The notes under the pieces are model-generated. The model saw only the letters and a list, made by a program, of their open reading frames with translations. It was not told the origin of the DNA and made no database searches. Made by a program: the position numbers and the translations under genes. A stretch of 64,000 bases of DNA from Tomocerus qinae (lineage: Eukaryota > Arthropoda > Collembola > Entomobryomorpha > Tomoceridae). This document shows, one piece after another, positions 7,869-58,975 of the stretch; positions within the stretch are counted from its first letter, which is position 1; each line of letters starts with the position of its first letter. The DNA lies in contig CM034546.1 of the NCBI GenBank assembly GCA_020055645.1, forward strand, positions 86,614,001-86,678,000, in the 5' to 3' direction.

Positions 7869-7886
7869 ATATGCATTACAATATGC

Positions 7887-14639: not shown

Positions 14640-14890
14640 ATAAAATTTGTAAACGTTATTCTGATCAATGTGAAATGATGTGTAGAGTAGAATATGGAGT
14701 AAGTATGGAGTAAAATATGGAATAAGTATGAAATAGAATATGGAATAAGTATGGAGTAGAATATTGAATAAGTATGGAGTAGAATATGGAGTACGTGTGA
14801 AGTAGAATATGGAGTACGTGTGGAGTAGAATATGGAGTAAGCGTGAGTAGAATATGGAGTAAGTGTGAAGTTGCATATGGAGTAAGTGTG
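14640..14890. repeat. Minisatellite of about 20 bp (atggagtaagtatggagtag type)
   Basis: About twelve units of tatggagtaagtatggagta. The same family occurs at 41215-41365. Antisense frames here are repeat artefacts. Confidence 0.85.
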
Positions 14891-15795: not shown

Positions 15796-16155
15796 GTACA
15801 ATCTATGTCATAACAGCAGTTAGTTTACGTTGGAGTAAAAAAAGGAAGAAGTGGGCGACGGCTTACAGTACATGGAGGCTTATGGTAAAGGGTGGCTTAT
15901 GGTGGCAGCATTGAGACACCGACACCGTCAAACCAGCTAATACTATGTAGATAAAGAAAAAAATGTAAAACATTTGGGTAGATTGAGTGTGGTCTGTTGC
16001 ATCTAGTCTCGGTCAGTGGTGGGTACTTTATAAAAGTTGTGATATTTTGCTTATAAGAGTATATAATAAAGTTTTTTGTCAAAGACCTTCAGTGTAAAAT
16101 TAGTAGCCTTAAGGTTAAAATTTTTTAAATCAAGTCATAAATTTTAACGTGTCCG
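15796..16155. other. Satellite tail shared with the 43.3-kb locus
   Basis: 15855-15935 (gcgacggcttacagtacatg, then cttatggtaaaggg, then gtggcagcattgag) resembles 43290-43380 (gagcgacggccaatgg, cttatggtaaaggg, ggtcgcagcatcag). Both copies follow the gtcggg satellite, so this tail belongs to the same repeated unit. No gene. Confidence 0.55.
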
Positions 16156-41212: not shown

Positions 41213-41214
41213 AA

Positions 41215-41365
41215 GAAGTAAATGGGGAGTAAAATATGTAGTAAGTGTGGAGTAGAGTATGGAGTAAGTGGGTAATAGAATATGGAGTAAGTGGGTAATA
41301 GAATATGAAGTAAGTATGGAGTGGAGTATGGAGTGGGTGGGGAGTAGAATATGGAGTATAAAATA
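41215..41365. repeat. Minisatellite, same family as 14640-14890
   Basis: Units of ggagtaagtgggtaatagaa and tatggagtaagtgtggagta abut the end of the 20-bp satellite. Confidence 0.8.
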
Positions 41366-41399
41366 GATTGGTGTAATGAGTTATTCTCAGGGGAACGCT

Positions 41400-42250
41400 A
41401 AGTTACCCCCGTGAAATTGCCAGTCAAAATTTAACCTGCCGTTCACTTGCCCATCAAACATCTGCTTGCCGTCCACTTGACCATCAAAAATCAACATGTC
41501 TTCCACTTGCCCATCAAACATCTACCTGCTGCCAACTTGACCATTAAACATCTAGCTGCTTTCAACTTGACCATCAAACATCTACCTGCTGTCAACTTGA
41601 CCATCAAACATCTACCTGCCGTCAACTTGACCATCAAACATCTACCTGCTGTCAACTTGACCATCAAACATCTACCTGCTGTCAACTTGACCATTATACA
41701 TCTACCTGCCGTCCACTCGACCATCAAACAACCACCGGTCGCCTACTTGCACATCAAACATCTACCTGCCCTCCACTGGCCCAACAAACATCCACCTGCC
41801 GTGTTGTTACCCGTAAAAATTCTCCGTGCTTTAAAATCGCACGTGAAAATTTTACCAGCCGTGTTACCCGCCAAAGTTCTATAGGCTGTAAAATTACTTT
41901 GTTAAAGTCCTACAGGTTTTAAAATTACCCGTCAAAATTCCACCTGCCGCGCAATTACCCTTCAAAATTCATCCTGCCATCCACTTACATAGCAAACATT
42001 TACTTGCCTTTTTCTTCCCCATCAAAAATTTACATGCCGTGATGTTCTTCCTTAAATTCTACGTACTTTAAAATTACCCCGTCAAATCTACGTGCTTTTA
42101 AATTACCGATTAAAAAATCTAAATGCTTTAAAATTACCCTGTCAAAGTGCTAACGCTTTAACATTACCCGTTAAAGTCATACCTGCCGTGAAATTACCCG
42201 TCAAAATCCCACCTTCCCTGAAATTACCCATCAAAATTAAGCCTTCCGTC
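41400..42250. repeat. 30-bp satellite (catctacctgctgtcaactt type)
   Basis: Units of catctacctgctgtcaactt followed by gaccatcaaa, regular from 41450 to 41780 and degenerating to 42250 (variant tgccgtgaaattacccgtca). The ten-residue period creates false frames on both strands. Confidence 0.9.
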
Positions 42251-42695
42251 GATGTTGAGATTTGGTACACATGTAGTGTGGTCTCGGCTTTCGTATAGTT
42301 GGAATTGGTCTCCCAGCTACATAAAATAAATAATTTTATATTATACCCTATTGGTAGATCTAGTTTGATACTTTCTTATACAGTAGTTGCCTAATTGATT
42401 GCCTTCTTTTACAGCTTATCTAATTAAATGAGATATTTCATTGTGTATTGCATAACTTGTTTGGCAATCGATTATTGTTTTCCCTACTGACATTTTAATA
42501 ATTATTTAATTGGTTTTCCACAACTATATTAACTTTAATTATTTTTTGCCTTGTATGGTTGGTTTTTTGCAAATTAAAATATCATGTAGTATGGCATGAG
42601 TTTGTTAAGGTATAAATATGTTCAATGAAATGAAATTAAATTAGTTATATGCAATGTAGTAAGGTTTAGTTCAAAAAATTAAAACTGATTTCCGG
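42251..42695. other. AT-rich spacer, nothing recognised
   Basis: Between the 30-bp satellite and the gtcggg satellite. No frame of interest. Confidence 0.5.
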
Positions 42696-43400
42696 TCGCG
42701 CCGCAATGTCTAATAGACATTATGCGGTCGGGTGTCAGGTCTTGTGTTATTGGGTATCGGGTCTTGTGCTAATGGGTGTCGGGATTTGTGTCAGTGGGTG
42801 TCGGTTCTTGTGTTAGTGGGTGTCGGGTTTTGTGCTAGTGGGTATCGGGTCTTGTGTAAGTGGGTGTCGGGTCTTTTGTTAGTGTGTGTCTGGTCTTGTG
42901 TTAGTGGGTGTCGGGTCTTGTGCTAATGGGTGTCGGGTCTCGTGTTAGTGGGTGTCGGGTCTTGTGTTAGTGGGTGTCGGGTCTTATGCTAGTGGGTGTC
43001 GGGTCTTGTGTCGTCGGGTCCCATGTAGTCGGCTGTCTCAATGGTGGGTGTCAGACCCTATGTTGTTGGCGGTCAGGTATGTAGGTGTCGAGCCCTATGA
43101 GGTCGGCTGTTGTGTAGGTGGGTGTCGGGTCCTATGAGGTCGGCTGTCGTGTTGGTGGGTGTCGGACCCCATGTGGTCGGCTGTCGCGTCAATGGGTGTT
43201 GGGTCTTGTGTCATTGGGTGTGATGTTCCGTATAGTCGGATGTCGTGTTTGTGGGAGTCGGGTCGACCCTGGATCTGTCACTTCCGTGAGCGACGGCCAA
43301 TGGAAAAGTGAGACTTATGGTAAAGGGAGGACTATATTAAAGGGCGGCTAATGGTCGCAGCATCAGCAGATACAGTCACCGACTCATTCTGCTGTATGTA
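42696..43400. repeat. 22-bp satellite (tcgggtcttgtgttagtgggtg) and tail, related to 14.9-15.95 kb
   Basis: Opens taatagacattatgcggtcg, as at 14905 (taatagaaattatgtggtcg), then about 20 units of 22 bp, then longer units with ccccatgtggtcggctgtcg. It ends in the shared tail at 43290-43380. Same family and same order as the 14.9-kb locus. Confidence 0.85.
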
Positions 43401-43879: not shown

Positions 43880-44130
43880 CAAGTCCGAGAATATAGGTCG
43901 TAGCAAGACAAAGTTGGTCTCTAAAAACGCAAAAAATGTCAATTAGCAGATTGCATTTAAAATCCTAATTTTTACATTCGTCTGCGAGTTATTGCAATTT
44001 TCCCATGAAATAAATTAAAATCTCGTAACCAGAGGTAAAAATTAAAAATCTAATTGCAATCTGCTATAAATTGACACTTTCTGCGGCTTTAGAGACCAAC
44101 TTCGTCTTTCTACGACCAATATTCTCGGAT
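43880..44130. repeat. Fold-back element (family copy D)
   Basis: Left arm 43880-43972 (tccgagaatataggtcgtag through ttagcagattgcattt) pairs with 44037-44130 (caatctgctataaattgaca through tacgaccaatattctcgga) at about 80 percent or better. The upstream phrase gactatcatattagcc...aacttttttt at 43837 matches the outer motif of copies A and B. The provirus inserted right at its edge. Confidence 0.75.
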
Positions 44131-44133
44131 TAG

Positions 44134-44702
44134 TGTCGGTAAACGTTATAATTATAGGTATTACTATATCTATATAAGTACTACTACTATTACTACTTGT
44201 TTGTAAAGGAAGGATGAACGGACTCTGTGTTGAGCGAGTGTACCCACAGAAACGGAGGAACGGATGAACGGTGTATTGTTATAAGTTTATGTAATGTAAT
44301 GTGAAAGATGTATTGTATTGAATGAGTGTATTGTGTGTCCTTTGTATTCCTATCCCTACCAACCTTTACTACTCCGACGCAACGAGGAGAACCCGACCAG
44401 CACATCGGCTCCGAGTAGATTTGACAAAAGCGGCTGCACACTTCATTTACAATCGAAGTTTGCCTTGGCCCTTTCTCTAGTACATATACCTAAACTCTCT
44501 CCAATTTAACAACCATTTCCTCTCAAAATTATCCTTCTCTCAACCCTCTGTAAACAAGAAGCTGCTTAAATAAAAGAGCGTAAGCTCACAAAACCCAAAC
44601 CTAAGTTTTACTCTCAATTTATTAAACTTAAAATCATACAAAGCAATAGGAGTAGAACACGTCGACATTCCACATTCCATCCTAATTAGAGGGATGATGA
44701 CA
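44134..44702 (+). repeat. Provirus 5' LTR (569 bp)
   Basis: Starts tgtcggtaaacgttataatt, ends gggatgatgaca. Contains an aaataaaagagcg polyadenylation-like signal near 44567. Aligns end to end with the 3' LTR once the MITE is removed. The small frames at 44193-44441 and 44318-44509 recur in the 3' LTR and are LTR sequence. Confidence 0.92.
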
Positions 44703-44707
44703 TAAAT

Positions 44708-44725
44708 TGGTGGCCCTGCGAGGCT
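44708..44725 (+). promoter_or_regulatory. Candidate primer-binding site of the provirus
   Basis: tggtggccctgcgaggct begins 5 nt after the LTR end, the expected place for a PBS, and starts TGG. I could not match it with confidence to a tRNA 3' end, so the primer is unassigned. Confidence 0.35.
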
Positions 44726-44944
44726 TTGCCTATTTGTGTGATTCTTTGTTTTTGGGAGTAATTTGAGAAAATTAAAAGTCTGCCTTTTTCCTGTGAAATT
44801 TCTATTTCCTTACATACATATTGTCCTGAGACTCCTTTCAAGTAAAAGTTGTGCACGAAAATTCTACAATTAGTTGGTGTTTGTGCCAAGCATATTATGC
44901 GTCTGCACAAATACCCCGTTTCGGATTAGGCTTCGCCACGAGAC

Positions 44945-45115
44945 ATGTGTTGCGCTGTTAATTTCACTTTTGCATTGATTATCATAGTCATAATTTTTAT
45001 TATCATATCAGAAGCATATTTATTTCACGAAAGTGACAATATTATTAACAACCTGAGAGAGCAAATTCAGAATTACTATAGAGAAACACCTTGGCAGACT
45101 TCCTCACCCGAGTAA
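44945..45115 (+). CDS. Small leader ORF with one membrane segment
   Basis: 56 codons, ATG to TAA. Begins MCCAVNFTFALIIIVIIFII, a strong hydrophobic segment, then a polar tail (NNLREQIQNYYRE). It lies between the 5' LTR and the gag remnant, where retroelements usually have non-coding leader. Possibly a fourth small membrane protein in addition to those downstream of env, or a displaced exon. Family unknown. Confidence 0.45.
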   Translation: MCCAVNFTFALIIIVIIFIIISEAYLFHESDNIINNLREQIQNYYRETPWQTSSPE

Positions 45116-45204
45116 TACATTAGGCGATTTCATCCATCTCATCTCCATTACATACATAAGTAGTACGTAAGATTAGAATAAGTGCATAAAACGTGTGTCA
45201 AAAA

Positions 45205-45545
45205 TATATAAAGAATGAAATGATGTTAGTGTCTTCCGAAGGAATAGACAGGAATATTATCCTAATAAAGAACAAATAAATAAATGCAGAGAAAATAATA
45301 TTAAAGTCTTCCGGAGGAATAGACAGGAATATCAGCCTTAAGAAAGAAAAGAAAATAATATCAGTGTCTTCCGAAGGAATAGACAGGAATATTATCCTAA
45401 TAAAGAACAAATAAATGAATAAAGAGAAAATGATATTAGTGACTTCCGGAGGAATAGACAGGAATATTATCCTAAAATAAATGAAAATGAAATGATATTA
45501 GTGTCTTCCAAAAAGTAAATAGACAGGAATATTATCCTAAAAAGC
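45205..45545. repeat. Tandem repeat in the provirus leader, about 70-80 bp unit
   Basis: Five imperfect units of gatattagtgtcttccgaag then gaatagacaggaatattatc then ctaataaagaacaaataaat. Non-coding; antisense frames here are artefacts. Confidence 0.85.
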
Positions 45546-46125
45546 GCTAAGACTTAATTGATTCGCGTTGAATTGATTAAAACTCCGAACATAATAGCGT
45601 TGAGAGAAAATAAATATAAACCGTCGAGAAGCATTCCCATTTGTAGCAATGAGAAGCGTCCATAAATACATATCCTGTTTTATGTAGAATATGAACACAG
45701 ATACACTATTATGTGAATGAATTCGACATATATGCCGCGTTAGAAAGCGATGAAATCTTAGGGACGTCTTAAAACTAAAATTAAAAGTACAGATCTATTA
45801 AATATATTAAATAATAATTGGTAACTATACATTGTCAATGAATGAAAATAGCAATGAAAGCGACGGGTAAACCTGGGTATAATCATATATGGCCAGTCAC
45901 TAGAGTTAATGTTAGCAGTGAAGGAGACTGGAATGTGTAACTGAAGTATTGAAATTTACTACGATAAATAAAGAAGAATAAACCAAATACATTCAACCAT
46001 TGAAAAGTGAAGAGATAAAAGTAAGATTTTAATATAGGATAGATTAAGCACACACACAAACAGTATACACTACACACTCCTTATTTAAAGTTTTCCTTTC
46101 GTCATAAACTTTTTACAACATCGAA

Positions 46126-46470
46126 ATGGATTACTCGGACGATGATTTATCATCAGAATTTGAAGAGCCGCAGGAGGGAATACAACGTCAACTAGACTAT
46201 GCTGTGATGTACGTAAACTCAATCAATTATGTATACCAGATGTGTTTCCTTTTACAAGTCAGGAAGCCATGATTCAAGCTATGCGAGACTCACCATTTAA
46301 AACAGCTTTAGATTTGAAAAAACGTTATCATCAGGTGACGTTAGATGAACAATCACAACAATTACAATCATAACGCAAGACGGTACCTATTCGTTTACTC
46401 GTCTTTTATTTGGACTTTTATCAGCTCCTGCGATGTTTCAAAGCACAGTATTTTGATCCCCATGGCTACT
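46126..46470 (+). pseudogene. pol: Gag start fused by deletion to RT fragment
   Basis: ATG at 46126 opens an acidic N-terminus (MDYSDDDLSSEFEEP), probably Gag. Within about 25 codons another frame gives Ty3/gypsy RT: RKLNQLCIPDVFPF, TALDLKKRYHQVTLDE with the first catalytic Asp, then after a stop and shift QDGTYSFTRLLFGLL and SAPAMFQ. The sequence ends before the YxDD box. Protease, the rest of RT, RNase H and integrase are absent. A large internal deletion plus later decay explains this. Confidence 0.75.
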
Positions 46471-47599
46471 CCCCCACATACAGTAATGCCCTACCCAAAA
46501 TAACAAAAATTTTGCACCAAATTTTAGATATATAAAGTACCTTCAAGAAAACGAAGAGACATACAAGTTCCTATTGGATCAGTAAATCAAGACTTGCTAG
46601 ATCAAATCAAGTATGCTTCTGTAGATCGAATCAAAAGGATACAGGGTAACGAAATTATGATTGAAACTTTCTTGAAGAAAATGACAGAAAACAATGAAGG
46701 CAAGGAAATACAATGTCTTCGCTTCTTTTTGAACTATATAGAGGAATGAAACGTGTTGTTCTTAGCATGAATAATTTATATCATGATTATCAGAAGAAAA
46801 GGAATCTGGATATAGAATTGTTGAATCTGCATTTCTCAAAATTTATACTTCACCCAATATACTAATTTGTTAAATACCTATGCATTAATTGAAAAAACGT
46901 GTTTAAATCATCGAATTCCCAACACAATTATATCACCGAATGTATTGAAGTATGAACTAAAACAATTAGAAATTTCATTGAACCAATTAAATTTAACATT
47001 GGCATTACCAATTGAAAAATTAACTAATTATTTTAAAATGAAAATAACAACTTGCAGTAATTCGGATTCAAAGTTATACATAATAATTAAAGTACCATTC
47101 AAATCAGAATCTAATTGAAAACATTTTTCAACTCATCCCAATACCATTGAGATTTGAAGGGAAAACTTATAGGCAAAAAGGAATACCAAAATGTATAGCA
47201 AAAGATAAACGACATCATGATAACAGCTATCAATAGGAATACATGGGCAATAACAAATCCAACACCAGAAGCTAAAGTTGTATGTGACGGAAGAAAGACT
47301 ATAGAAATAGGAAAAGCACCATTCAGGGGCACTATTCTCGTTACAACTTGCAACTGTGCTATTATCATGTATGAACAGCTACCTATTAGACCAAGTATAC
47401 CTTGTGAAATAGAAGTAAAAGAAGCTAATCTAATTCAAATGACACCAACATTGTGGTCTCAACTTGACAAGTTTAAAACACCAGAAAAGAATTATGTCAA
47501 TGAGTCAATACAGAAAGACGAGAGTAACATAAAGAAATTGAAAACTAAACTAAATCAATCGATACCTACTTCTCACAAAATTAATGTAAGAACATTTCA
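46471..47599 (+). pseudogene. env: Envelope (errantivirus/baculovirus-F-like), N-terminal portion, decayed
   Basis: Frames in sequence: about 46545-46860, 46867-47118, then 47217-47599, separated by stops at about 47116 and 47150 and by frame changes. Content fits the ectodomain of an insect errantivirus envelope: long helical heptad-like stretches, then a Cys-containing segment with ITAINRNTWAI and ILVTTCNCAIIM. It is followed, after the LINE, by a transmembrane domain. The last frame stays open up to the LINE target duplication. I infer env from architecture and position; a profile comparison would settle it. Non-functional as it stands. Confidence 0.6.
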
Positions 47600-47696
47600 T
47601 GAGGAGCGCGCGGGAGGTTTGAACGTAAACACATGCTGAGTTTGGATCCTGAATTTTACAAAATTTTAAGCTAATTTTATCTACTACCCTCACTCA

Positions 47697-48382
47697 ATGC
47701 ACAGTTTAAGTAGTGTCGCAGCTACATTTGAGAACCCTCCGTTGAAGAAAATAAAAAGTGCAAGTATGCCAGGCACATCTAAGGAAGGAGGAGACTCCGA
47801 AATAAAAACACTTTTGATGGCTATGGAAGGCCGGCTCACCTCGAAGATTGACAATCTAGAAACCACTTTCGCAGCCAACTTACAACAAACAATCTCGGAA
47901 AGTAAAAGAGCACTAACCAAAGTTCAACAGACCCTAAAAGAAAACAATGTCGTTATCCAGGGGGCCCCAGAAGAGGAGAAGGAGACACTGGAAAAACTGT
48001 GTTCAATATTTGACGACGTGGCCAATAAGTTGGAGATCAAAGGTATTTTGGTGGACAAGATTTTTCGCATGGGGAAGCTGTGCCCAGGGATCAATAGGCC
48101 CATTCTGGTGAAACTAGTGCGTTTTATCGACAAAGAATGCTGTGGAACAGAGGAAAGTTAAAGGATCGGGGCATTTACATCAATGACGACCTTTCAGTAG
48201 AAGAAAGAAAACAGCAAGGGGAACTCCGGAAAAAGGCTGCGGATATCAAAAAAATTCGTCCAGGCATCGCATTTAGAATTTCGGGTTCAACACTAGTAAT
48301 CAGGGAAAACGGGGTGGTCACAGATGTCTTTGAAACGAAGGAGGATGATTCCATCTCTAAAAAGCGACCGCGAACTTCGTGA
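47697..48382 (+). pseudogene. LINE ORF1 (RNA-binding protein), one frameshift
   Basis: 47697-48161 begins MHSLSSVAATFENPPLKKIK with a coiled-coil (MEGRLTSKIDNLETTFAANL), then the RRM-like core VVIQGAPEEEKETLEKLCSI and KIFRMGK. At about 48140 the frame shifts and the same domain continues (RGKLKDRGIYINDDLSVEER) to 48382. About 229 residues in total. This coiled-coil plus RRM-like layout is known for ORF1 proteins that coat LINE RNA. Confidence 0.75.
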
Positions 48383-48439
48383 GGATTCGGGCCCAGGAAT
48401 AGTCAAACACGTTCAAATCTTGTAAAAATCAAATTTAAC

Positions 48440-49373
48440 TTTATTACGTGGAATATGGAAGGTATGAAAAAATTAAACTTTTTAAATAGTGATGAAAAAT
48501 GGGAGCTAATGCAAACATCTGCGGTAGGATTATGTGAAACTTAGGACGTAGTCCCCTCTAAATTACCTAGCTATTTAAGTCACTTTAATTGTATTAGTCG
48601 GCAAAAAGAGAACATAACAAAGGTAGAGCTATAGGAGGTATCTCCCTATTACTAAATAAAAATTTGACTAAATTAATAGAAATTATTGACATTGATCAAT
48701 CTTGGATCTTATGTAAAGTGGAGTGTTTAGCCTCAAAAAAATTTTATTATTGGGAATTGTATACTTACATCAAGATGATTGTCACATTAATAATTTAATT
48801 AAATTAAGTAATTTAATAGAGAATGTCTATTTGTGTCATTCTCTTCCAGTAATCATCGGTGGAGACTTTAACGGCCGTGTCGGTTTGTATGACATCTCAG
48901 TGGACGAGTTACATTGCAAAGTTGGTAATCACACTAGATTATCCTGTGATCGGACGTTAAATTTTTATGGGAGCAACCTCATTCAGTTTATTGAGGACTA
49001 CAGCTTGGTAATTGCCAATGGGAGATCAAAAAGTGATTCAAAAGGGGAGTTCACTTTTATTAATAAAAATGGCAAAAGTGTCATTGATTATATGTTATTA
49101 AATTATAAAGCGTGTGAATCGTTTGTAGATTTTAAGATATTAAATTTCATTGAGTCATGTCATTTTCCTATAAGACTCCAGCTAGGGGACATACAAAATT
49201 CATGCATTTGGGGAGAGAGCACTCTGAGTTGGAAACCGGAATCAGCTGATCAGTATCGAAATATTGTGATGGAAAAAGATATATCTAATTACGAAGAATT
49301 AAAAACTGCAATTCAGGACGCTGCAAAAAAATCAAAAATGGTGAAAAGAAGAAAATTAGTACCTGATGCATGA
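48440..49373 (+). pseudogene. LINE ORF2, endonuclease domain, broken
   Basis: APE-type motifs in order: FITWNMEG (48447), GLCET followed by a stop (about 48530), a shifted segment with GGISLLLNK, then from 48723 GIVYLHQDD, VIIGGDFNGRVG (catalytic Asp/Asn), and GKSVIDYMLL with SCHFPIRL in the place of the SDH motif. At least one stop and two shifts. It would nick target DNA in an intact copy. Confidence 0.75.
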
Positions 49374-51650
49374 ATGCAGAAAATTACTCTGGAAATGTCG
49401 TACATTGAATATAATTGCAAAAAAGCGGAGTTGGACTCCAGAAGCGAGAGTGAATTATTATAATGCAAAGGCCGAATACACTAAAACACGAAAGTTAAAA
49501 CAAAAAGACTTCTGGGATAAGAAAAGGAAAGATTTGGAAAATGCTAATAAGCCTGAGTTTTGGAAAGCCGTGAACATGTTCAGAAAAGTGCTAATAATTC
49601 AGAATAACATTAAGGAAGAGAAATGGATCGATTATTATAAAAATGTGCTGCCGAGTAGGTCAACGGAAAATACACTATTCTATGATGCAGGACATGAAAT
49701 TCTAACCTCAGAATTCAGGCTGGAAGAATTAACAGTAGCCATAAGAAATCTCCCAACCAAAAAAGCGGCGGGACCAGACCAAATAGCATATGAATTCATC
49801 AAATGCTTACCAGAGGATGGTGATGAAAATTTTGGACATTTTTAATAATATTCTAGAATCGGAAGATCCTCCTAAGGACTGGGCGGATTCAATTACTGAT
49901 ATGCTGTTCAAGAAGGGAGACTCAGAAGATCCGGCCAATTATCACCCGATAGCCCTTATGAACTGTATAGCCAAACTCTTCTCACAATTAATATGTACTA
50001 GATTACAGAAATGGTCAGAAATCACAGGTGTTCTCCCTGAAGCGCAAGGTGGCTTTAGGAAAGGCAGGGGATGCGAGGATCAAGTCTTTACCTTGAACAG
50101 TGCAGTACAGATTGAATTCGAAAAAGGTCTATGCACTGTTCATAGATTTTGCCCGTGCTTTTCCCAGCATTAGTCACAAGATACTCTGGCCTCGTCTTTT
50201 TCACCTGGGCATCTCCGGAAAAATCATCAGAATTTTGGAGAAAATTTATTCACAAGCGTCGACACAGATCCGACTGCCTGAAAAAGTAACTTCACCGATA
50301 GACATCACGGAGGGCCTGATGCAGGGGTGCTGCCTCTCGCCCCTCATCTTTAGCCTGTATATTCACGACATTGAGGAGGAATTACAGAGAAAAGGGTGGA
50401 GAGGGGTGCCGATTAACGACAAATCCATGCTGCACATTCTGCTTTATGCCGACGACACAATTGTAGTGGCCGATAACAGATTAAGCCTGCAGAGGAAAAT
50501 TAGGAACCTTGAATTATACTTCCGTAAATTAGAACTCGAAGTAAACATCACCAAAACTAAAGTGATTGTATTTAGAAGAGGGGGACCTTTGGAAAAGCGT
50601 CTAAATTTTACCTATAATGGAAAACCTCTGGATATAGTCAATGAATATGTATATTTGGGGGTGCCATTCTCGTCATCAGGGAAATTTGCCAAGGCAGTTA
50701 GTTACTTCAAAAAGAAAGCTGCTATTGCTCAAAATGGGGTCTCGGTCAAAGTGCTCCGTCTTTGCTAAGGGAAGGCTTGCATCGTTAGATTCCAAAGTTC
50801 GGCTTTTCGACTCAGTTGCTCTCTCTACATTGCTGTATTGCTGTCACATTTGGGGTTTGGAATATGTGGAGAAAATAGAAACATGTCAGACAAAATTTAT
50901 ACGGAAGGTATTGGGAGTAAAGGCCACTGTGCTTAAATGCGTGGTAAGGTTAGAAACAAATAGAACTAAGCTATGGGTGTTGATCGCAAAGCGATTGCAT
51001 TGCTTCCTGCAAAAATTATTTACAATGGATGATAATAGGTACGCTAAAAAATGCTTCGTGGTACTTAATAAATTGGCAAATACTGATGCTGGTGATAATT
51101 GCAACTGGGTAAGCCAATGTAAAACGTTCACTGAGAAAATCGGCCTAGGAGATATTTGGGAGGATGACACGGGTAAACTTATAGCTAATGATTATGTGGA
51201 AATATGTTATACACTAGTAAATAAAAGTAAAGAGGAGGATCTAATATCATTAGCAGGTTATGACAATTACAAATATTTTGAACATTATGATATTGTGAGA
51301 CTAAATAGCCCGCAATCCCATAAACTGTCTTTTTGGGATGACAGGCTATTGAGTCAGTTGATGCTGTATGTGACATGTTGTCATATAAAAGTAAAATATT
51401 TATGTTTAAAGATAGTTTAGTTTGTGACTTATGTAATTTACAGCGACCAAATACCTTCTTCCATTTGCTGACTGAGTGCTGTGCACACAATAGAAAGGAA
51501 ATTCAGAGTCTGATACCTAAAGATGTTCATTGTATGTATAAACTATTTGATAGTAGTCAGATAGAAAATATAAAAATGTTATTGACTTATGTTAAGACTG
51601 CTCTCAATAGGATAAATTTTATTAATATCTTAGACTATAATGAAACGTAA
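49366..51650 (+). pseudogene. LINE ORF2, reverse transcriptase and C-terminal region, broken
   Basis: RT blocks in overlapping frames: KKAAGPDQIAYEFIK (49760), NYHPIALMNCIAKLF and EAQGGFRKGRGCEDQV (49940-50090), ALFIDFARAFPSISHKILW (50130), GLMQGCCLSPLIFSLYIHDI (50310), the catalytic LLYADDTIVVAD intact at 50440-50475, then YVYLGVPFSS. Continuing 50768-51420 is the connecting region, and at 51421-51480 a CDLC...HLLTEC zinc-knuckle-like motif. About four frameshifts split it. Clade not assigned; no RNase H seen. Confidence 0.85.
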
Positions 51651-51982
51651 TTAATTTTGACAAGCTCCAAATATTTGTTTAAATAAATTAATGCAGTAAC
51701 AATTTGTGATGCATAGGATATTGTATAGGGGGATGGGTGCTTAAGGCTGTATGTGCAGAGTGTAATAGCTTAACCAAAAGGTTGGTTAAGTTCTGATTCA
51801 CCGGACGCCAAGGGGCGGAGGTATTCGGGTAGTAGAGGGATAGGTTCCCTTGAAGGGATCAGTTGGTCGGCATATAGTTAGTGAACTTATTTCTACAATA
51901 TCTTTATAATTATAAATTGTAACTTTTCTTTATATTCTATGGGCCAAGGCTCGTCGAGAATAAAATCAATATTCATTCATTC

Positions 51983-52176
51983 ATGTAAGAACATTTCAAG
52001 GAATTCATGGAGTATTTATAGGTTGGAATTTACTATTAACAGCAGTAATTATCTATGTTATATTCAAACTTTATCATGTATTCAATATACTGCCACTCAT
52101 AGTCATAACTTACTGTCAATCTGAGAACCATGAGGTAGAACAATTATTCGATCAATTTCGTTTTCCAGCTACTTAG
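51983..52176 (+). pseudogene. env: Envelope C-terminus: transmembrane domain and tail
   Basis: After the second copy of the LINE target duplication the env frame resumes and ends at TAG 52174-52176. It holds a long hydrophobic segment (FIGWNLLLTAVIIYVIF) followed by a short polar tail ending FRFPAT. It fits the membrane anchor of the split envelope gene. Confidence 0.65.
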
Positions 52177-52391
52177 AAGCTTTGATTATACTACAGTTTG
52201 TTGTACTACTTATGATTATAATTGTACTATGTCATATAAAATATGGGAGAGATATACAATACTGGAGGAGGCATAAAAGACACCAGCAATTAGAATCAAT
52301 AAAGTTAAATAGGGGAGACGACTCACAACGATCCAAAGCAAGCATCAGGCAAACTTACAGGAGTTACATGGGAGTCACCAGTACACTCTAG
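52134..52391 (+). CDS. Accessory ORF A: membrane protein, N-terminal part
   Basis: An open frame overlapping the end of env in another register, without an early ATG: a hydrophobic segment (LQFVVLLMIIIVLCHI), then a basic juxtamembrane region (YWRRHKRHQQ). It ends at 52391 while the overlapping frame (next entry) continues in protein-like fashion, so A and B were probably one protein split by a shift near 52310. No family recognised. A spliced leader would be needed for initiation. Confidence 0.4.
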   Translation, partial: GRTIIRSISFSSYLEALIILQFVVLLMIIIVLCHIKYGRDIQYWRRHKRHQQLESIKLNRGDDSQRSKASIRQTYRSYMGVTSTL

Positions 52392-52764
52392 AGAGTATAT
52401 TCCATCAGATATGATGCACCTTCTTAATAGTGAAATACGGATACGAACAGAAGGGAACAATAATACCATCAAGTCACATTACGATCAGCCTTCGGCATTG
52501 TGTATGAAGGTCAAAGACGAGAGTGTGAAGTTTACAACGGCAACAACTACACTGCCAAGGGCTACTGTAAACTATGAAAATTTTTTACCTTACAACAAAG
52601 GAAAGCACATTTCCATGGAAACTCTTCCTATGAAACAGAAGGAACAAGAACAACTTTACCCAACTAATCTTACTAATAATGATGATGATATACCTATATA
52701 TTCCACAGCCTTTAAACCAAAAGCCGTACGAAACAAGCAGCATCCCTTTCCTAACAACTTGTAA
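52311..52764 (+). CDS. Accessory ORF B: likely cytoplasmic half of ORF A protein
   Basis: Open from after a stop at about 52308. Codons before the first ATG (52411) are already protein-like (LTGVTWESPVHSREYIPSDM), which supports continuity with ORF A. The first ATG pair gives a 117-residue polar, Thr/Lys/Asn-rich chain with no membrane segment. Unknown family. Confidence 0.4.
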
Positions 52765-52907
52765 ATTAACATACTTAATTACATAAACAACACAAAATTA
52801 ATTTCTGAAATTATTGTTAAAGCTTAAGTATAGTCCAAATTTTTCTGGTAAAGCTTTTGTAAAACTTTGTGAGCATTGTGGCTAGTCAAATCTTAATCGT
52901 ATACTTG

Positions 52908-53208
52908 ATGCGTAACGTACTAATGAAATTAAACATACCTAATTGCAGTGACGAACACTCATACGTTTATAATATCTCAATTTACGAAATTGGAAGATTT
53001 TCTGGAGCAGAAATTTTCAAATATGACAAAAGATTCACCTCAAGATATTGATGTAAATTCATTCCTGTGCGGGCAATTATCGAGTATAGTTCTTATTGTA
53101 TTAGTGATAGTATTATCCTGTATATGGAACATTTTGGAAAGACTTCCAGGTCTTAGGTCACCATCAACTACAACAAAAACTACATGCCAACCACCATCTA
53201 CAAATTAA
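52908..53208 (+). CDS. Accessory ORF C: small single-pass membrane protein
   Basis: ATG at 52908 begins MRNVLMKLNIPNCSDEH. At about 52950 the better frame shifts to one running to TAA 53206-53208: short helix (FTKLEDFLEQKFSN), hydrophobic segment (SSIVLIVLVIVLSCIW), Pro/Thr-rich tail. Probably one protein with a single indel. The next ORF starts 4 nt later. No family recognised. Confidence 0.45.
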
Positions 53209-53212
53209 AGAA

Positions 53213-53479
53213 ATGTATTTCGATTCCATGATGCAGAACAAGACAGTGATGTGCAATCTTGATACGAACAAACCAAATTGGATTGAAGAATTTTATCAAG
53301 CATTAGACAACAACTGCACTGATGTTTATGTTACACCTACGATAATTAGAAGAACCACAATAATGAGTACTTCTTTAGAACTGAAAATTTTAGTTATAGT
53401 GTTAATAGTTTCCATTATATTGATGATTTCAGGACTCATACCAAGTTTACAAAGCAAGATCAACCACCCCATTCTATAG
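53213..53479 (+). CDS. Accessory ORF D: small single-pass membrane protein
   Basis: ATG at 53213, 88 codons, intact. Polar N-terminal half with two Cys, then a hydrophobic segment (LKILVIVLIVSIILMI), and a short tail. It starts 4 nt after ORF C, so the two may be translated from one message by reinitiation. The C and D pair has the same layout (soluble N-part, one membrane helix, short tail), suggesting duplication or partner subunits. Unknown family. Confidence 0.5.
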   Translation: MYFDSMMQNKTVMCNLDTNKPNWIEEFYQALDNNCTDVYVTPTIIRRTTIMSTSLELKILVIVLIVSIILMISGLIPSLQSKINHPIL

Positions 53480-53659
53480 CTCACCACCAATACTAGCTTA
53501 TCCATTGAGATCACGATCATATAGACAAACAATTCAAAGAGTATACGATGCTTGCTACAATTTACTACTATAAGCAACAAATTCAATTGTATTTACAATT
53601 TACTGGACATTTGAGTTGTTATAAAATAAGATACAACTAAACTGCTTTTAATTGGATAT

Positions 53660-53989
53660 ATGAAAAATACTGACACCACACCAATAAGAACTACCTATAC
53701 ATATGCTTGGGTACGTTATTTAACAAAAGGCACTTTACTATTCGAACGTATATCCAGCTGGAATGATGACTTCTGTAGCCATGTAATAAGAGACAATTTC
53801 CATAAGAATGAAAAGATAGATCAAGGCTGCTGGATCCAATTCAACATTTTTGGTACTCCCCAAAGACCTATATATGTATGTTATCTATACAAAAGGGAAC
53901 TGTGTTTAGTTGAAATTACACAACTATTAATGGTCCGTATACCAAAAGAAATGTTACCTACACCCCCAACTCAACTTCAAATTCAATAA
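53660..53989 (+). CDS. Accessory ORF E, unknown 109-residue protein
   Basis: ATG at 53660, intact. Aromatic- and Cys-containing, mixed alpha/beta character (TYAWVRYLTKGTLLFERI; IYVCYLYKRELCLVEI), no membrane segment or signal peptide. The tail is Pro/Gln-rich. I recognise no domain. It is clearly coding-like compared with shuffled AT-rich DNA (long, high-complexity, same strand as its neighbours). Confidence 0.5.
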   Translation: MKNTDTTPIRTTYTYAWVRYLTKGTLLFERISSWNDDFCSHVIRDNFHKNEKIDQGCWIQFNIFGTPQRPIYVCYLYKRELCLVEITQLLMVRIPKEMLPTPPTQLQIQ

Positions 53990-54157
53990 AAGAGATTTTA
54001 CGGACGAAACTTTTCGTCACTTCAAAACAAGATGAGTTGAGATGAACCACGACAAGCTCACTTGGAGGAGATAAAGAGACGATTCCCAGGATCAGATATT
54101 TGTGCCATCGACGAAACTTCGTTACAATCTTTTGACTTTTAACATTTAACATTTTAA

Positions 54158-54676
54158 TTGTTACAAAAGTCAATTGCAACAAGAGACCCTTTACCTAAAT
54201 TACAGTGGGCTATTGCAGCCATAGTTATTAATAACCATTTAGACTATACATTTCCCATATTTTCTGTGCTTTTTAAATTAAGTGTGAGTTTAGAGTATCA
54301 ACGAAATTTACTTGCCACCTGGAACATTTTTTTCACACCAGTAACCGATATTTGCTATTTTGCTCGTCAATACTTTACTAATCCTCATTTGTTAGATAAC
54401 CCATTGCATGCCCCTCGCCTAAATTTAATTGCTGGTCTATACGTTCAAGAAATCAAAACACCTGGAGAAGTCACACCTGCAGGAACAAGTTTAGACCGAC
54501 TACTTGTTATTACAAAGTCGGAATACATAAATGAAATTGAACTCATCCCAGGAGGACACGTTGCTAAAGTGCACACAAGAATCTCATCTATTTTAGACTT
54601 TGAAAAGCTATTACAATTCTATGAACGAGGACCACCTTTCAGTGCATCGGAGCAATTAACTATAACAATTACATAA
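54158..54676 (+). CDS. Accessory ORF F, unknown 172-residue protein
   Basis: Open from just after a stop at 54155. The nominal start is TTG and no early ATG exists, so it needs a spliced or shifted start (ORF E ends 169 nt upstream). Contents: a hydrophobic/aromatic middle (LDYTFPIFSVLFKLSV), a PRLNLIAGLYVQEIKTPGEV segment and an EIELIPGGHVAKVH segment. It ends 2 nt before the ATG of ORF G. No known family recognised. Confidence 0.5.
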   Translation: MLQKSIATRDPLPKLQWAIAAIVINNHLDYTFPIFSVLFKLSVSLEYQRNLLATWNIFFTPVTDICYFARQYFTNPHLLDNPLHAPRLNLIAGLYVQEIKTPGEVTPAGTSLDRLLVITKSEYINEIELIPGGHVAKVHTRISSILDFEKLLQFYERGPPFSASEQLTITIT

Positions 54677-54678
54677 AC

Positions 54679-55167
54679 ATGAACAACACACATCGAATCT
54701 CATTTTGGTGTTCCCTTAGAGATATCAAAAAAGTTTATTGTAAAGGCAAGTTATACATAATTCCACGGTTTCAGAATGAGGAGAAAGTGGCTTATGCCCA
54801 TATCGATTGGGACAAACTAGAACTGTGGTTTAAGAACCATATTAGACAGTCTCAACAACTATTGCATGACATTCTGTATTCAACGATCAGAGGCTCACCT
54901 ATCCTTCTAAAAACTATTAGTGAATCCATAATTAAGGACAGTGATTACAAACAAGCCATACCATATTATTTTTCACAGTTCTATCCTGGTGAAGTGCTGT
55001 TAAATAGTTTTATGCCGTATGACGTATTCAAAAAATATATGAAACCCTGGATTAATAGGTTCGCCACTAATTTTGTCACTACAAACGATATCAAGATACA
55101 ATATAAGATCTATGTAGCTTACATAACAGGAAGAAATCCGCAAAAGGGACTGATCAGAAACTACTAA
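54679..55167 (+). CDS. Accessory ORF G, unknown 162-residue protein, intact
   Basis: ATG at 54679, two nucleotides after ORF F's stop, which suggests coupled translation. Soluble, aromatic-rich: RISFWCSLRDIKKVYCKGKL, WFKNHIRQSQQLLHDIL, YYFSQFYPGEVLLNSFMPYD, with a basic C-terminus. No membrane segment. The most convincing uninterrupted accessory gene. No domain recognised. Confidence 0.55.
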   Translation: MNNTHRISFWCSLRDIKKVYCKGKLYIIPRFQNEEKVAYAHIDWDKLELWFKNHIRQSQQLLHDILYSTIRGSPILLKTISESIIKDSDYKQAIPYYFSQFYPGEVLLNSFMPYDVFKKYMKPWINRFATNFVTTNDIKIQYKIYVAYITGRNPQKGLIRNY

Positions 55168-55193
55168 TATTTGCCTCGAAGTTAGTTAGCTAG

Positions 55194-55668
55194 TTAGCCT
55201 CTAAGTCGCCAAGACAACTATACTTTGGACAGGACGGATTAACAGCAACCCGATTTATAAGACACCTGTCACGGCATAATTTATGTGAATGGCAACTAGA
55301 AGTGCTCTATGCAACTCTAATTAAACTGTGTCAATATAACCGTGAATGGAGGCCGATCTTCCAACAAGAAGCCTTCGACTTAGTGTACCAATTACAAGAG
55401 TGCACTCCTTATAGAAATTTGACAAATCATTCATTATTGTGTTCATTATCTTTTACATACCAATCAACACCAAGAAGATCATGAACTTTTGTTTCCTGCT
55501 GACACTATTAAGAACGTCAGTGTGTTGAATTTAGGGTCACAGGCAGCTAAAAGTGAGTATTTATTTAGGGCGTTCACACCAAAAGAAATCAGAGCTCTTA
55601 AAAGAAAGGCTCGACATAACAAACTAGTTCCGGTCCTTTATCCGGAAAGTGAGACTGACATCGATTAA
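55194..55668 (+). pseudogene. Accessory ORF H, frameshifted
   Basis: First part 55194-55484 (no ATG; LYFGQDGLTATRFIRHLSRH, EWQLEVLYATLIKLC), second part about 55465-55668 in the next frame (HELLFPADTIKNVSVLNLGS, then basic KRKARHNKLV and a stop). The frames overlap at about 55465, which points to one indel in what was an about 155-residue protein. Unknown family. Confidence 0.4.
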
Positions 55669-55745
55669 TATTCAAATTAACTATTCATCATGGACGACTT
55701 ATATAGCTTCGCGAATTATATAGTATACATAATAGTGTCGTGAAC

Positions 55746-56728
55746 ATGGAGATATTCAAAGTAGAATTTCACCCTCAACGAGTGAATGGTGCCCCTTACC
55801 TACTGCCATCAATCCAAGAAATGATTGTAAAGCCCTGGACTTGGGATTACTTTGAACCCCAACACTTTTTACTAGTGGTTAAAACGAATCCAAGATAACT
55901 ACCAACTAATAGGATTGTGCCTATTAGTTAGTCTGGATCCTAAGTCTATTTGATAAAAGTATCGAACTATTACGAAGATCTAAGGAGAATTAAGACAATG
56001 AGACCTCCGAACTAATTCATGATCTTTATTTAATAGTAGTTACAGGAACAGACAATTTGCATTTTAGCAATCTAGTTCGAAACTTCATTAGTCGATGCAT
56101 ATATTTGGAGTTGGATTGGAATAATCCCACTACCATATCTACACTAACGATTGCAAAGTTTCTCATATTTTTAAAAGTAAATACACCGAACGAAAACTAT
56201 AACAAATTGTTAAGTGTATTAATAGTAGATATGCTTCGTTCAAACAAAGAGAATACTTATTTAACAAGGGAAGATACTTTAACTATACAAACAAAGCTAT
56301 TTACTGAAAAATTACCACTAAGTGACAAAAGAGTGTCTATTAGGGCATTTCTGCATGCACTAAACGAATATAAACTAACATTGGACCCAATATCTAAACA
56401 AGTTGTGTCAACACCAAAAGAGTTTTTAAAAGTGCACGAGTTAAGTTCACTACCTTTAGTGAGTTTTCATAAACGCTCTGAGTGCATCGAACAACCTACT
56501 AAAGTGTCATCTGATAATGAGCGCAATTCAGGCTCCATATTATGGCTACCAACTATCTACTTGCAACGTAATACTTCACGTCATTTACAGGAATTGTTCG
56601 TGCGTCGCCCATCTGTAATTACTACATCCAACGAATCAAGAAAGCGACAAGCAACTTCAACATCTTCATCATCTTTAAAAATGGACAAAATCGACCAGGA
56701 AGATCTTAAATTTCCTTATGATGTTTAA
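55746..56728 (+). pseudogene. Accessory ORF I, helical protein, broken in its N-terminal third
   Basis: ATG at 55746 begins MEIFKVEFHPQRVNGAPYLL and runs about 50 codons. Protein-like sequence then continues through two frame changes and one stop (about 55900-56000) into a long open stretch, about 55999-56728: LIVVTGTDNLHFSNLVRNFI, ISTLTIAKFLIFLKVNT, then a Ser/Thr-rich basic tail (SRKRQATSTSSSSLKMDK). Originally about 320 residues, mostly helical. Function unknown; a capsid-like or nucleic-acid-binding role is only a guess from the basic tail. Confidence 0.45.
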
Positions 56729-57531
56729 CTAAATATATACATTCCATTTAAAATCATGTCACATAAATAAACAAAGTTTGCTATTGATATACTTCTATAT
56801 CTTGCTTATAATAAAAAAAACTGTCATAATGTAATTGAAGTTTTAACAACTTACTTCACAATTGTAAATAGTGGTAGAAATTTAATTAAATTCAATAATA
56901 TAATACTGGGACCTAATGCTACTATAAATGATCGGATTTTTCAAAAAAATTTATCAATTATGATGGTTGAGGGTCAACTTAGATTTAAGGATATAATACT
57001 TATAAGGTAAATAATTTAATATGACCTATACTCTAGATAAGGCTAGCCATCGATCTTTGGCTTCCGAACTGCATCGGTTGTTCATTTGGTAGTACAGCTA
57101 AGTTATCTGTGCAGTGTTATGTTGCTGAGACTGTCTGATCAATAGTCGAAAGCTTGATTAACATTGCTCCAATTCGTGTTCATGTGGTTGCTAAATGGCT
57201 CAACTTAGTTGAAAGTCAGTATGAGCAACTATTATATTTTGTGCTGCATTTGGATTGTGGATGCAGGTCGGATAGTTGGAAATTGATTGTAAGTCTTATA
57301 TGCATATATATTTACTAGAGACATGAACTGTTGTAATAACATCTAAATAGACTTTTTCCACCTCTACGAATCTATGAATGGTTCTGTGTAACAATATAAT
57401 GGGTCACTAGGTTAAGTGCAATAAAATCCAAAAAGAGTCAAGTAGTTGTTATTTTGTAATTGTAGTAGAGCTTTGACCTATAATTATATGCTAGCCCTAT
57501 CTGTAATATAATAACTGGAGGGACCTCGTTT
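56729..57531. other. Provirus 3' non-coding region
   Basis: AT-rich, no long frame. Follows the last accessory ORF and leads to the purine tract. Confidence 0.5.
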
Positions 57532-57548
57532 AAGAGGAAAGAGGGTAA
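57532..57548 (+). promoter_or_regulatory. Polypurine tract of the provirus
   Basis: aagaggaaagagggtaa directly precedes the 3' LTR start; only the final t interrupts the purines. Confidence 0.7.
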
Positions 57549-58442
57549 TGTCGGTAAACGGTATAATTATAGGTATTACCAAGGAGCATGGACGTTGCCA
57601 TAGTATAGTTGCGCTTTATCAGGAGAGCCGAGTAGGGAATTTTACCATAAGCGAATTTGAAGATTTATAAGGGACGTTTTTTGGAAAACGTCCCCGACCC
57701 CTGTCTTTATCAATCTGCTATAAACATTCATGTCCTGTTTGCTACTTGCTATCCTCTAATAATTTAATACGTTTCCAACAGCATAGCAACCAGATATTTA
57801 CACAAAATTAGGGACAAAATGTCGCTTATAGATCTTCAAAATCCCTTACGGGCAATTCTCTACTTGGCTCTCCTTATTAACCGTCCAAGCTCCTTGGGTA
57901 TTACTATATCTATATAAGTACTACTACTATTACTACTTGTATGTAAAGGAAGGATGAATGGACTCTGTGGTGAGCGAGTGTACCCACAGAAACGGAGGAA
58001 CGGATGGACGGTGTATTGTTGTAAGTGTATGTAATGTAATGTGAAAGATGTATTGTATTGAATGAGTGTATTGTGTGCCCTTTGTATTCCTATCCCTACC
58101 AACTTTTACTACTCCGACGCAACAAGGAGAACCCGACCAGCACATCGGCTCCGAGTAGAGTTGACAAAAGCGGCTGCACACTTCATTTACACTCGAAGTT
58201 TGCCTTGGCCCTTTCTCTAGTAAACATACCTAACCTCTCTCCAATTCAACATCCATTTCCTCTCAAAATTATCCTTCTCTCAACCCTCTGTAAACAAGTA
58301 GCTGCTTAAATAAAAGAGCGTAAGCTCACAAAACCCAAACCTAAGTTTTACTATCAATTTATTAAACTTAGAATCATACAAAGCAATAGAAGTAGAACTC
58401 GTCGACATTCCGCATTCCATCCTAATTAGTGGGATGATGACA
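57549..58442 (+). repeat. Provirus 3' LTR (569 bp plus 325-bp MITE insertion)
   Basis: Total 894 bp. Subtracting the 317-bp MITE and one 8-bp target duplication gives 569 bp, exactly the length of the 5' LTR. Confidence 0.92.
57580..57896. mobile_element. hAT-like MITE in the 3' LTR
   Basis: 8-bp target duplication ggtattac (57572-57579, 57897-57904). Ends caaggagcatggacg and cgtccaagctccttg are inverted repeats with the CA-G...C-TG form common in hAT elements. A second inner fold (gatttataaggg / cttatagatctt) is present. Non-coding. Confidence 0.85.
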
Positions 58443-58975
58443 TTAGAGTTTCTCAAAAAAAATCTTCACTTTTGTGCCCTATTCATTTTGCTGTGTTGTC
58501 ATAGAATAAATTTTGAACCACATCTGAACCTTATATGCTTTTGTTGGTGAATGGCGAATATTAAAGTATAATACTAAGAAAACTAACAATAACGGCTTTT
58601 TTGGTCGTATCGAGTTCACAAGCAAAGTGACAAGAGAGTAGAGCTGCAAATGGGCAACAAAGCCAAGAAAAGTATCGGGAGAAGGTTGGGGTTCGGACAC
58701 TAACCGTTATTTTGTCGCTAATGGAGATGTGAGATCACTCAATTTCACCTCGAGGAGAGTGCCCCATGTACCGCACCCCATGTAAACCCCTAAGTATGAC
58801 TTCGTTTTTTTTATTGGCTACAGGCGGCGACTGCTAGTATTTCGTTAGTGCAGGGCCGAAACGCTAGCTGTTGCCATTAAAAGAGTTGCTAACAAATATT
58901 TTGAATTTCGTCAACAAAAACAGGACTACGTTCTGATCCTAATCTATCCTTACCGCCCATTAAAACCTTTTCGCT
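58443..58975. other. No recognisable gene
   Basis: After the provirus target duplication. The minus frame 58479-58700 has no recognised features. Confidence 0.5.

What the first reader, a model, noticed from the sequence alone, without database searches (positions are those of the whole stretch)
52134..56728. Provirus with a long cluster of unrecognised accessory genes between env and the 3' LTR
About 4.6 kb of same-strand frames (at least eight: A/B, C, D, E, F, G, H, I) follow the envelope gene inside one pair of LTRs. Spacings are virus-like: C to D 4 nt, F to G 2 nt, A overlapping env. Two or three are small single-pass membrane proteins; five are larger soluble proteins of about 110-320 residues with no family I know. 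Known insect errantiviruses have gag, pol and env only. It could be a new lineage of complex insect retrovirus, or an LTR element that captured a block of another virus's genes. No internal TIR or target duplication marks a separate insertion.
Basis: partly seen in the sequence, partly recalled or inferred. Interest (0 to 1): 0.88.

Follow-up and report, generated by a model that had tools for sequence, protein, structure and literature searches.

The report
Retrovirus-like element with six extra genes
This genome holds a family of retrovirus-like elements that carry, besides the usual three genes, a long-conserved set of six extra genes of unknown kind, which simpler relatives examined in the same genome do not have.

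Summary
The finding is real and larger than the window shows. The window holds a broken provirus (44134-58442, TTAG duplication) with most of gag-pol deleted and a LINE in env. After env lie damaged remnants of six genes, C-H; the frames at 52182-52764 are env tail, and several listed frames are pieces of larger genes. The cluster recurs in the same order in five other copies with gag and env upstream (C46, C1:82.06M, 67.78M, 20.82M, C10). F and H are open in all five; one copy has every frame open. Against C46, C-H are 38-61% identical in protein, gag 40-49%, env 39-49%, pol 62-65%. Between-lineage dN/dS is 0.10-0.25 where computable (D untested). G and H are paralogs, F probably; C and D are small membrane proteins. 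Searches of Pfam, PHROGs and, for some of the genes, PDB, IMG/VR and a large protein set found no relative. Five simpler gag/env elements in the genome have the LTR about 230 nt after env and no cluster. Best reading: an old lineage of complex, errantivirus-like retroelements. Accessory functions are unknown; splicing from a leader donor to env, and probably C, is inferred from motifs only.

The parts
44134..44702 (+). 5' LTR (569 bp, TGTCGG...GATGACA); TSD TTAG at 44130-44133
   Evidence: 524 of 547 aligned positions identical to the MITE-free part of the 3' LTR
46021..46022 (+). predicted leader 5' splice site (AAAA|GTAAGAT), about 105-115 nt upstream of the gag ATG
   Evidence: the only GT[AG]AG in each of four ~200-nt leader pieces (window, C46, 82.06M, C10)
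46126..46479 (+). gag start fused to a pol RT fragment: remnant of gag-pol after a large internal deletion
46528..47636 (+). env fragments upstream of the LINE
47600..51985 (+). LINE inserted in env (endonuclease and RT domains), approximate ends; not part of the virus
52949..53208 (+). gene C: ~86-aa single-pass membrane protein; no ATG near its start, begins right after an acceptor-like GCAG|TG
53213..53479 (+). gene D: single-pass membrane protein (111 aa in C46; shortened here), two NxS/T sites before the TM in C46 and 82.06M
53548..53989 (+). gene E: ~149-aa soluble protein, frameshifted here
54032..54676 (+). gene F: ~333-aa protein, probable G/H paralog; broken here by stops and an internal deletion
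54679..55668 (+). gene G: ~327-aa protein, paralog of H; frameshifted here
55690..56728 (+). gene H: ~389-aa protein; deleted/frameshifted here; its last ~600 nt come from a divergent lineage (mosaic)
57549..58442 (+). 3' LTR with a ~318-bp MITE at 57580-57897 (GTATTAC duplicated); purine tract AGAGGAAAGAGGG just upstream; TSD TTAG 58443-58446

Best explanation
The window holds a dead member of a lineage of 'complex' errantivirus-like (Ty3/gypsy-type) LTR elements, about 16.6 kb when complete (LTR to LTR at C46). Besides gag, pol and env they carry six conserved genes between env and the 3' LTR: two small single-pass membrane proteins (C, D), one ~150-aa protein (E) and three larger proteins (F, G, H) that probably arose by tandem duplication. 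Proposed working: full-length RNA gives Gag and Gag-Pol (pol overlaps gag in the -1 frame in C46). A splice donor in the leader joins an acceptor at the env ATG to make Env mRNA, and a second acceptor at the start of C to make an accessory mRNA; the junction supplies or lies next to the start codon of C in three of four leaders. E after D, and G after F, are reached by closely coupled stop/start junctions. C and D act at the membrane with Env (assembly, release or entry). E-H are non-virion or regulatory accessory proteins that help the element in its host cell. Shown: structure, gene order, conservation, selection (except D) and G/H paralogy. Inferred: splicing, stop/start coupling, F paralogy. 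Guessed: the protein functions.
For: Gene order gag-(pol)-env-C/D-E-F-G-H in divergent copies (pol read in C46, 82.06M and 20.82M only). F and H open over full length in C46, 82.06M, 67.78M, C10 and 20.82M, 5 of 5. F has H within 6 kb at 13 of 13 F loci, E has F nearby at 11 of 11 E loci; E, F and H at 5 of 5 near-full-length gag loci. Between lineages dN/dS 0.10-0.25 in 10 of 12 comparisons (the other two saturated); close pairs 0.14-0.33; pN/pS intervals all below 1. G-H hhalign probability 95.7, E 8.8e-9; F-H P 0.0024. PR-RT-RH-IN Pfam domains. LTRs and TSD. C46 LTR pair 243 of 243 aligned positions identical, 2 gap positions, under half of the LTR compared. Donor motif in 4 of 4 leaders, three lineages. 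Acceptor before an ATG at the env start in C46, 82.06M and 20.82M, ranks 1/146, 2/219, 31/249; C acceptor ranks 28/311, 4/219, 12/249 of all AGs. D/E spacing 1 nt and F/G 1-2 nt in C46 and 82.06M. Five simpler elements whose LTR follows env within about 230 nt.
Against: No transcript or protein data. C's start would be ATG after splicing in C46, window and C10 but TTG in 82.06M. D-H have no good acceptor at their starts. F's paralogy rests on weak scores (hhalign probability 12 with H and 3 with G). dS is near saturation between lineages, so ratios are soft; D was not tested. Most copies are broken somewhere: 82.06M in env, 20.82M in gag, pol, env and G1, 67.78M in gag, C10 in env. D in 20.82M has no TM within its open frame. 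Some more distant gag or env hits have no E, F or H hit nearby: C2:5.21M, C1:47.47M and C1:86.19M (gag; the last with a 39% env fragment) and C1:33.5-33.6M (env 31-33%); whether they lost the cluster, never had it or are too diverged was not examined. Env has no Pfam match, and placement among named errantiviruses was not tested.
Confidence: 0.72

Rival explanations
1. Recent capture: one LTR element picked up a block of genes from another (DNA or RNA) virus and spread it.
For: C-H show no similarity to any retroelement protein in the searches made; five simpler gag/env elements of the same genome lack the block.
Against: Against C46, C-H identities (38-61%) are like those of gag (40-49%) and env (39-49%), with order kept, so the block was there before the lineages split. 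G and H are paralogs grown in place, and G is doubled in one lineage. No donor virus found.
Confidence: 0.15
2. C-H are host genes trapped between LTRs (transduction), or some became host genes.
For: LTR elements can trap DNA and occasional ORFs (review PMC6431247, passages). The H frame at C1:139.51M is open over 382 aa with only degraded G beside it, so a stand-alone H copy exists.
Against: 13 of 13 F loci have H within 6 kb and 11 of 11 E loci have F nearby. Of 19 H loci, 6 have no F hit: C1:20.8157M lies beside the 20.82M provirus, three (C1:139.51M, C1:127.87M, C3:42.71M) keep G beside H, C1:25.96M has an env fragment within 1 kb, and C1:11.08M is broken by stops. Most look like decayed copies.
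Confidence: 0.05
3. The frames are meaningless remnants, with no selection.
For: The window copy itself is broken in env, D, E, F, G and H.
Against: Full-length open F and H frames in 5 of 5 other copies; apart from C46 itself they are 38-59% identical to it; dN/dS 0.10-0.25 where computable between lineages.
Confidence: 0.01

Closest known systems
Errantivirus / insect endogenous retroviruses (Metaviridae; gypsy, ZAM, springer)
   Same: LTRs, 4-bp target duplication, gag, pol (PR-RT-RH-IN), env after pol with a basic cleavage-like site, env behind an acceptor motif; springer-clade env is spliced from an AU dinucleotide (PMC12992720, passages).
   Different: The ICTV profile (PMC7879559, whole text) gives one to three genes; here six more. 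Pol relatives found in the protein search are 26-41% identical.
LTR elements with extra ORFs: reviewed in PMC6431247 (passages); bdelloid rotifer ORF3 captures, PMC5408684 (abstract and outline)
   Same: [quoted passage not shown] rotifer elements have extra ORFs, some with TM segments.
   Different: Those are single or occasional ORFs; here six genes conserved as a set downstream of env, with in-place paralogs.
Complex vertebrate retroviruses (lenti-, delta-, foamy viruses)
   Same: Accessory genes around and 3' of env; splice-dependent expression proposed here (comparison recalled).
   Different: No Pfam accessory family matched C-H; pol domains look Ty3/gypsy-type (reading of Pfam names, recalled). 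Works-like comparison only.
Simpler env-carrying elements in the same genome (C1:1.90M, 22.22M, 42.73M, 66.98M, 132.02M)
   Same: gag (31%) and env (22-23%) homologous, 4.5-6.6 kb apart; paired LTRs. Pol between them was not searched.
   Different: LTR begins about 230 nt after the env stop at 1.90M, and the same env-end-to-LTR DNA matches at the other four; no room for C-H.

Membership tests
Metaviridae (Ty3/gypsy LTR retroelements) | LTRs TG..CA with short target duplication | tested here: met
   (TTAG both sides in the window copy)
Metaviridae (Ty3/gypsy LTR retroelements) | pol order PR-RT-RNase H-integrase | tested here: met
   (C46 pol, in two pieces; protease below Pfam's cut-off, E 0.0004)
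Metaviridae (Ty3/gypsy LTR retroelements) | primer binding site next to the 5' LTR and purine tract before the 3' LTR | tested here: inconclusive
   purine tract present; TGGTGGCCC five nt after the LTR not assigned to a tRNA
Metaviridae (Ty3/gypsy LTR retroelements) | one to three genes (gag, pol, env) as in the ICTV profile | tested here: not met
   nine genes in C46 (profile text); so it is a variant, not a standard member
Errantivirus | F-type (baculovirus-like) envelope gene after pol | tested here: inconclusive
   env with basic site and TM, homologous to env of simpler elements in the genome, but no Pfam hit to a fusion protein
Errantivirus | falls in the monophyletic errantivirus clade by RT/pol tree | not tested
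   no labelled errantivirus pol was at hand; hits are 26-41% identical
Errantivirus | env from spliced subgenomic RNA | tested here: inconclusive
   donor and acceptor motifs present; no RNA data
Complex Retroviridae | Retroviridae-type pol by phylogeny | not tested
   no tree made
Complex Retroviridae | regulatory/accessory proteins of known retroviral families | tested here: not met
   Pfam scans of C-H found none

The most novel reading that the evidence does not exclude
Complex retrovirus genomes evolved independently in the Ty3/gypsy (Metaviridae) branch: this lineage gained and expanded a six-gene accessory system, with a family of tandem paralogs, and keeps it under selection alongside simpler gag/env relatives in the same host.
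Probability: 0.6. Interest if true: 0.85.

Novelty: new variant of a known kind. Interest (0 to 1): 0.74.

Why it matters
The ICTV profile of Metaviridae gives at most gag, pol and env (PMC7879559). A lineage with six more genes, conserved as a set and without a recognisable relative in the searches made, would show that retroviruses of this branch can be as complex as lentiviruses or foamy viruses. It raises questions about splicing, genome size limits and arms races with the host (small-RNA defence among them). Simpler and complex relatives side by side in one genome give a natural comparison.

Tried and rejected
Separate mobile element carrying the block: rejected; no bounding repeat of 60 nt or more and the block recurs in five other copies. 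Accessory status of 52182-52764: rejected, it is env tail. Function by homology: nothing in Pfam (C-H), PHROGs (C-H), PDB sequences (E, F, G, H), IMG/VR (H, F, E) or the large protein set (H, G); C and D were searched only in Pfam and PHROGs. The DUF1687 match for F (3 of 6 members, best E 0.0043) is weak and was not followed. Structure: window E (109 aa) and window G (162 aa) folded without alignment had mean pLDDT 45 and 33, so no fold search was made. Splice-made AUG for C: fits 3 of 4 leaders. Acceptors at D-H starts: none convincing, with an approximate recalled profile. Pol extension: no PDB match. Host identity by telomere motif: not completed. A whole-genome G search did not complete; C and D were not searched genome-wide as proteins. 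Rfam: nothing in the window.
Full report
What is in the window. The window is C1:86614001-86678000 of an unnamed 334-Mb genome. A provirus runs from 44134 to 58442, flanked by TTAG on both sides. Its LTRs agree at 524 of 547 positions. Most of gag-pol is deleted, a LINE with endonuclease and RT domains sits in env, and a MITE sits in the 3' LTR. The segment named in the finding has a strong coding signal on one strand. Comparison with other copies shows that it holds the env tail and six damaged genes, C-H.

Other copies. DNA search found close copies on C46 and C7 and a more distant one at C1:22.05M. The C46 copy has LTRs at 14702-15244 and 30790-31331, identical at 243 of 243 aligned positions with 2 gap positions, under half of the LTR being compared, and stop-to-stop frames for gag (546 aa), pol (1696), env (826), C (91), D (132), E (162), F (347), G (336) and H (392). 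Protein searches found further lineages at C1:82.06M, 20.82M, 67.78M and C10:60-75k, plus decayed remnants. Gag: open in C46, 82.06M and C10; one TAG in 20.82M and 67.79M. Env: open in C46 and 67.78M; broken in 82.06M (N-terminal part in another frame), 20.82M, C7 and C10. Pol: read in C46 (open), 82.06M (open over the 1464 aa in the piece fetched) and 20.82M (772 aa, then a frame change in the C-terminal extension); not read in 67.78M and C10. F and H: open in C46, 82.06M, 67.78M, C10 and 20.82M, 5 of 5. G: open in C46, 82.06M, 67.78M and C10; in 20.82M G1 is in two frames. So one copy has every frame open and the others each have a break somewhere.

Co-occurrence. I merged the matches (30 matches; 20; 13) by hand into 19 H, 13 F and 11 E places and typed the coordinates into a script: 13 of 13 F places have H within 6 kb, 11 of 11 E places have F nearby, 5 of 5 loci with near-full-length gag hits have E, F and H, and 13 of 19 H places have F. 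At C1:22.05M the order is disturbed (H lies upstream of F). The six H places without F are C1:139.51M, 127.87M and C3:42.71M (with G beside H), C1:25.96M (env fragment within 1 kb), C1:11.08M, and C1:20.8157M beside the 20.82M provirus. The 139.51M H frame is open over 382 aa, with only degraded G next to it; I do not know why. Conversely, weaker gag hits at C2:5.21M, C1:47.47M and C1:86.19M (the last with a 39% env fragment), env hits of 31-33% at C1:33.5-33.6M, and a short 85-89% env fragment at C1:85.627M have no E, F or H hit near them. These were not read.

Age and selection. Against the C46 copy, pol is 62-65% identical (82.06M and 20.82M), gag 40-49%, env 39-49%, C 57% and D 55-60% (82.06M only), E 44-61%, F 38-59%, G 38-53% and H 40-47%. 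C-H have thus travelled with the virus. Nei-Gojobori dN/dS between lineages was 0.10-0.25 in the 10 of 12 comparisons where dS could be computed (env, C, E, F, G, H); in two (F with 82.06M, G with G2 of 67.8M) dS was saturated. The highest upper bootstrap bound of pN/pS between lineages was 0.72. Five close pairs gave dN/dS 0.14-0.33, with an upper bound of 0.85 for G, C46 against C7. D was not tested. dS is near saturation, so the ratios are soft, but open 330-390-aa frames at such divergence are themselves strong evidence.

The proteins. G and H are paralogs; F aligns in the same register with weak support. In the 67.78M, C10 and 20.82M copies G occurs twice, G1 about 40% and G2 about 53% identical to the C46 G. 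C has one hydrophobic TM segment in three lineages, D in C46 and 82.06M; the D frame of 20.82M has none. D keeps two N-glycosylation motifs before the TM in C46 and 82.06M. The tails of C in 82.06M and 20.82M are proline-rich. Searches gave only chance-level hits: Pfam and PHROGs for C-H, PDB sequences for E-H, IMG/VR for H, F and E, and the 5.8-billion-protein set for H alone and a G alignment. That set did return 24 pol relatives, among them named fish, phylloxera and bee proteins, so it holds some animal proteins, but its coverage of this host's relatives is unknown.

Expression. A GTAAG donor lies about 105-115 nt before the gag ATG in the four leader pieces looked at, three lineages. An acceptor-like AG directly precedes an ATG at the env start in C46, 82.06M and 20.82M. 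Gene C has no ATG near its start in C46, window or 82.06M but begins exactly after CAG; joined to the donor exon this gives ATG in C46, window and C10 and TTG in 82.06M. A comparable arrangement, env spliced from an AU dinucleotide, is reported for the springer clade (PMC12992720, passages). D/E are 1 nt apart and F/G 1-2 nt apart in both C46 and 82.06M. The acceptor score used an approximate recalled profile, not a trained model.

Simpler relatives. The same genome holds five elements with gag (31%) and env (22-23%) relatives at C1:1.90M, 22.22M, 42.73M, 66.98M and 132.02M and no E, F or H hit there. At 1.90M the env frame stops and the LTR begins about 230 nt later, with a 100% identical 667-bp partner upstream. 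At the other four the same env-end-to-LTR DNA and an upstream LTR partner are found; only 1.90M was read. Pol was not searched in them. Other distant env hits were not examined.

Mosaic. In 150-nt steps the window copy is mostly 89-95% identical to C46 up to about 56.13 kb and 72-81% beyond, while C7 stays at 93-98% over that region. The end of H in the window therefore came from a divergent relative, which points to recombination between lineages.

Literature. Searches for extra genes in errantiviruses or insect retroviruses gave no title or abstract start describing such a cluster in the rows listed; most of those papers were not opened, and the library holds open-licence papers only. The ICTV profile was read whole; PMC13172572, PMC12992720 and PMC6431247 as passages; PMC5408684 as abstract and outline. 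[quoted passage not shown] Chary and Hayashi 2025, cited in PMC13172572 for 289 metazoan errantiviruses, did not appear in one search and could contain related elements.

Limits. No RNA data. The function of C-H is a guess.

Noticed in passing
56128-56728: C-terminal part of H in the window copy is only 72-81% identical to C46 while the rest is mostly 89-95%: recombination between lineages.
   Followed up: partly
57580-57897: ~318-bp inverted-repeat element (MITE) inside the 3' LTR with GTATTAC duplicated.
   Followed up: no
47600-51985: LINE with endonuclease and RT domains inserted in env.
   Followed up: partly
43884-44129: 61-nt inverted repeat, 89% complementary, directly before the 5' LTR.
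   Followed up: no
G000:C2:5207577-5208572: gag-like stretch, 44% identical to the C46 gag, inside a 1159-aa open frame; no env, E, F or H hit near it. Could be an env-less element or a domesticated gag.
   Followed up: no
G000:C1:139509199-139510323: H frame open over 382 aa with only degraded G beside it and no gag, env, E or F hit nearby.
   Followed up: no
C46 pol (L009:6920-8014): Long pol extension after the integrase, ending RGTRERRRPPYLDDY; the end is kept in 82.06M and in similar form in 20.82M; no PDB match and only weak Pfam hits.
   Followed up: partly
40000-43300; 6910-7870; 15342-15914; 26966-27562: Long minisatellite arrays (units 20, 22, 23, 30 bp at 40-43 kb) and frames made of repeats.
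   Followed up: no
8901-9590: Frame with a Retrotrans_gag domain of another LTR element.
   Followed up: no
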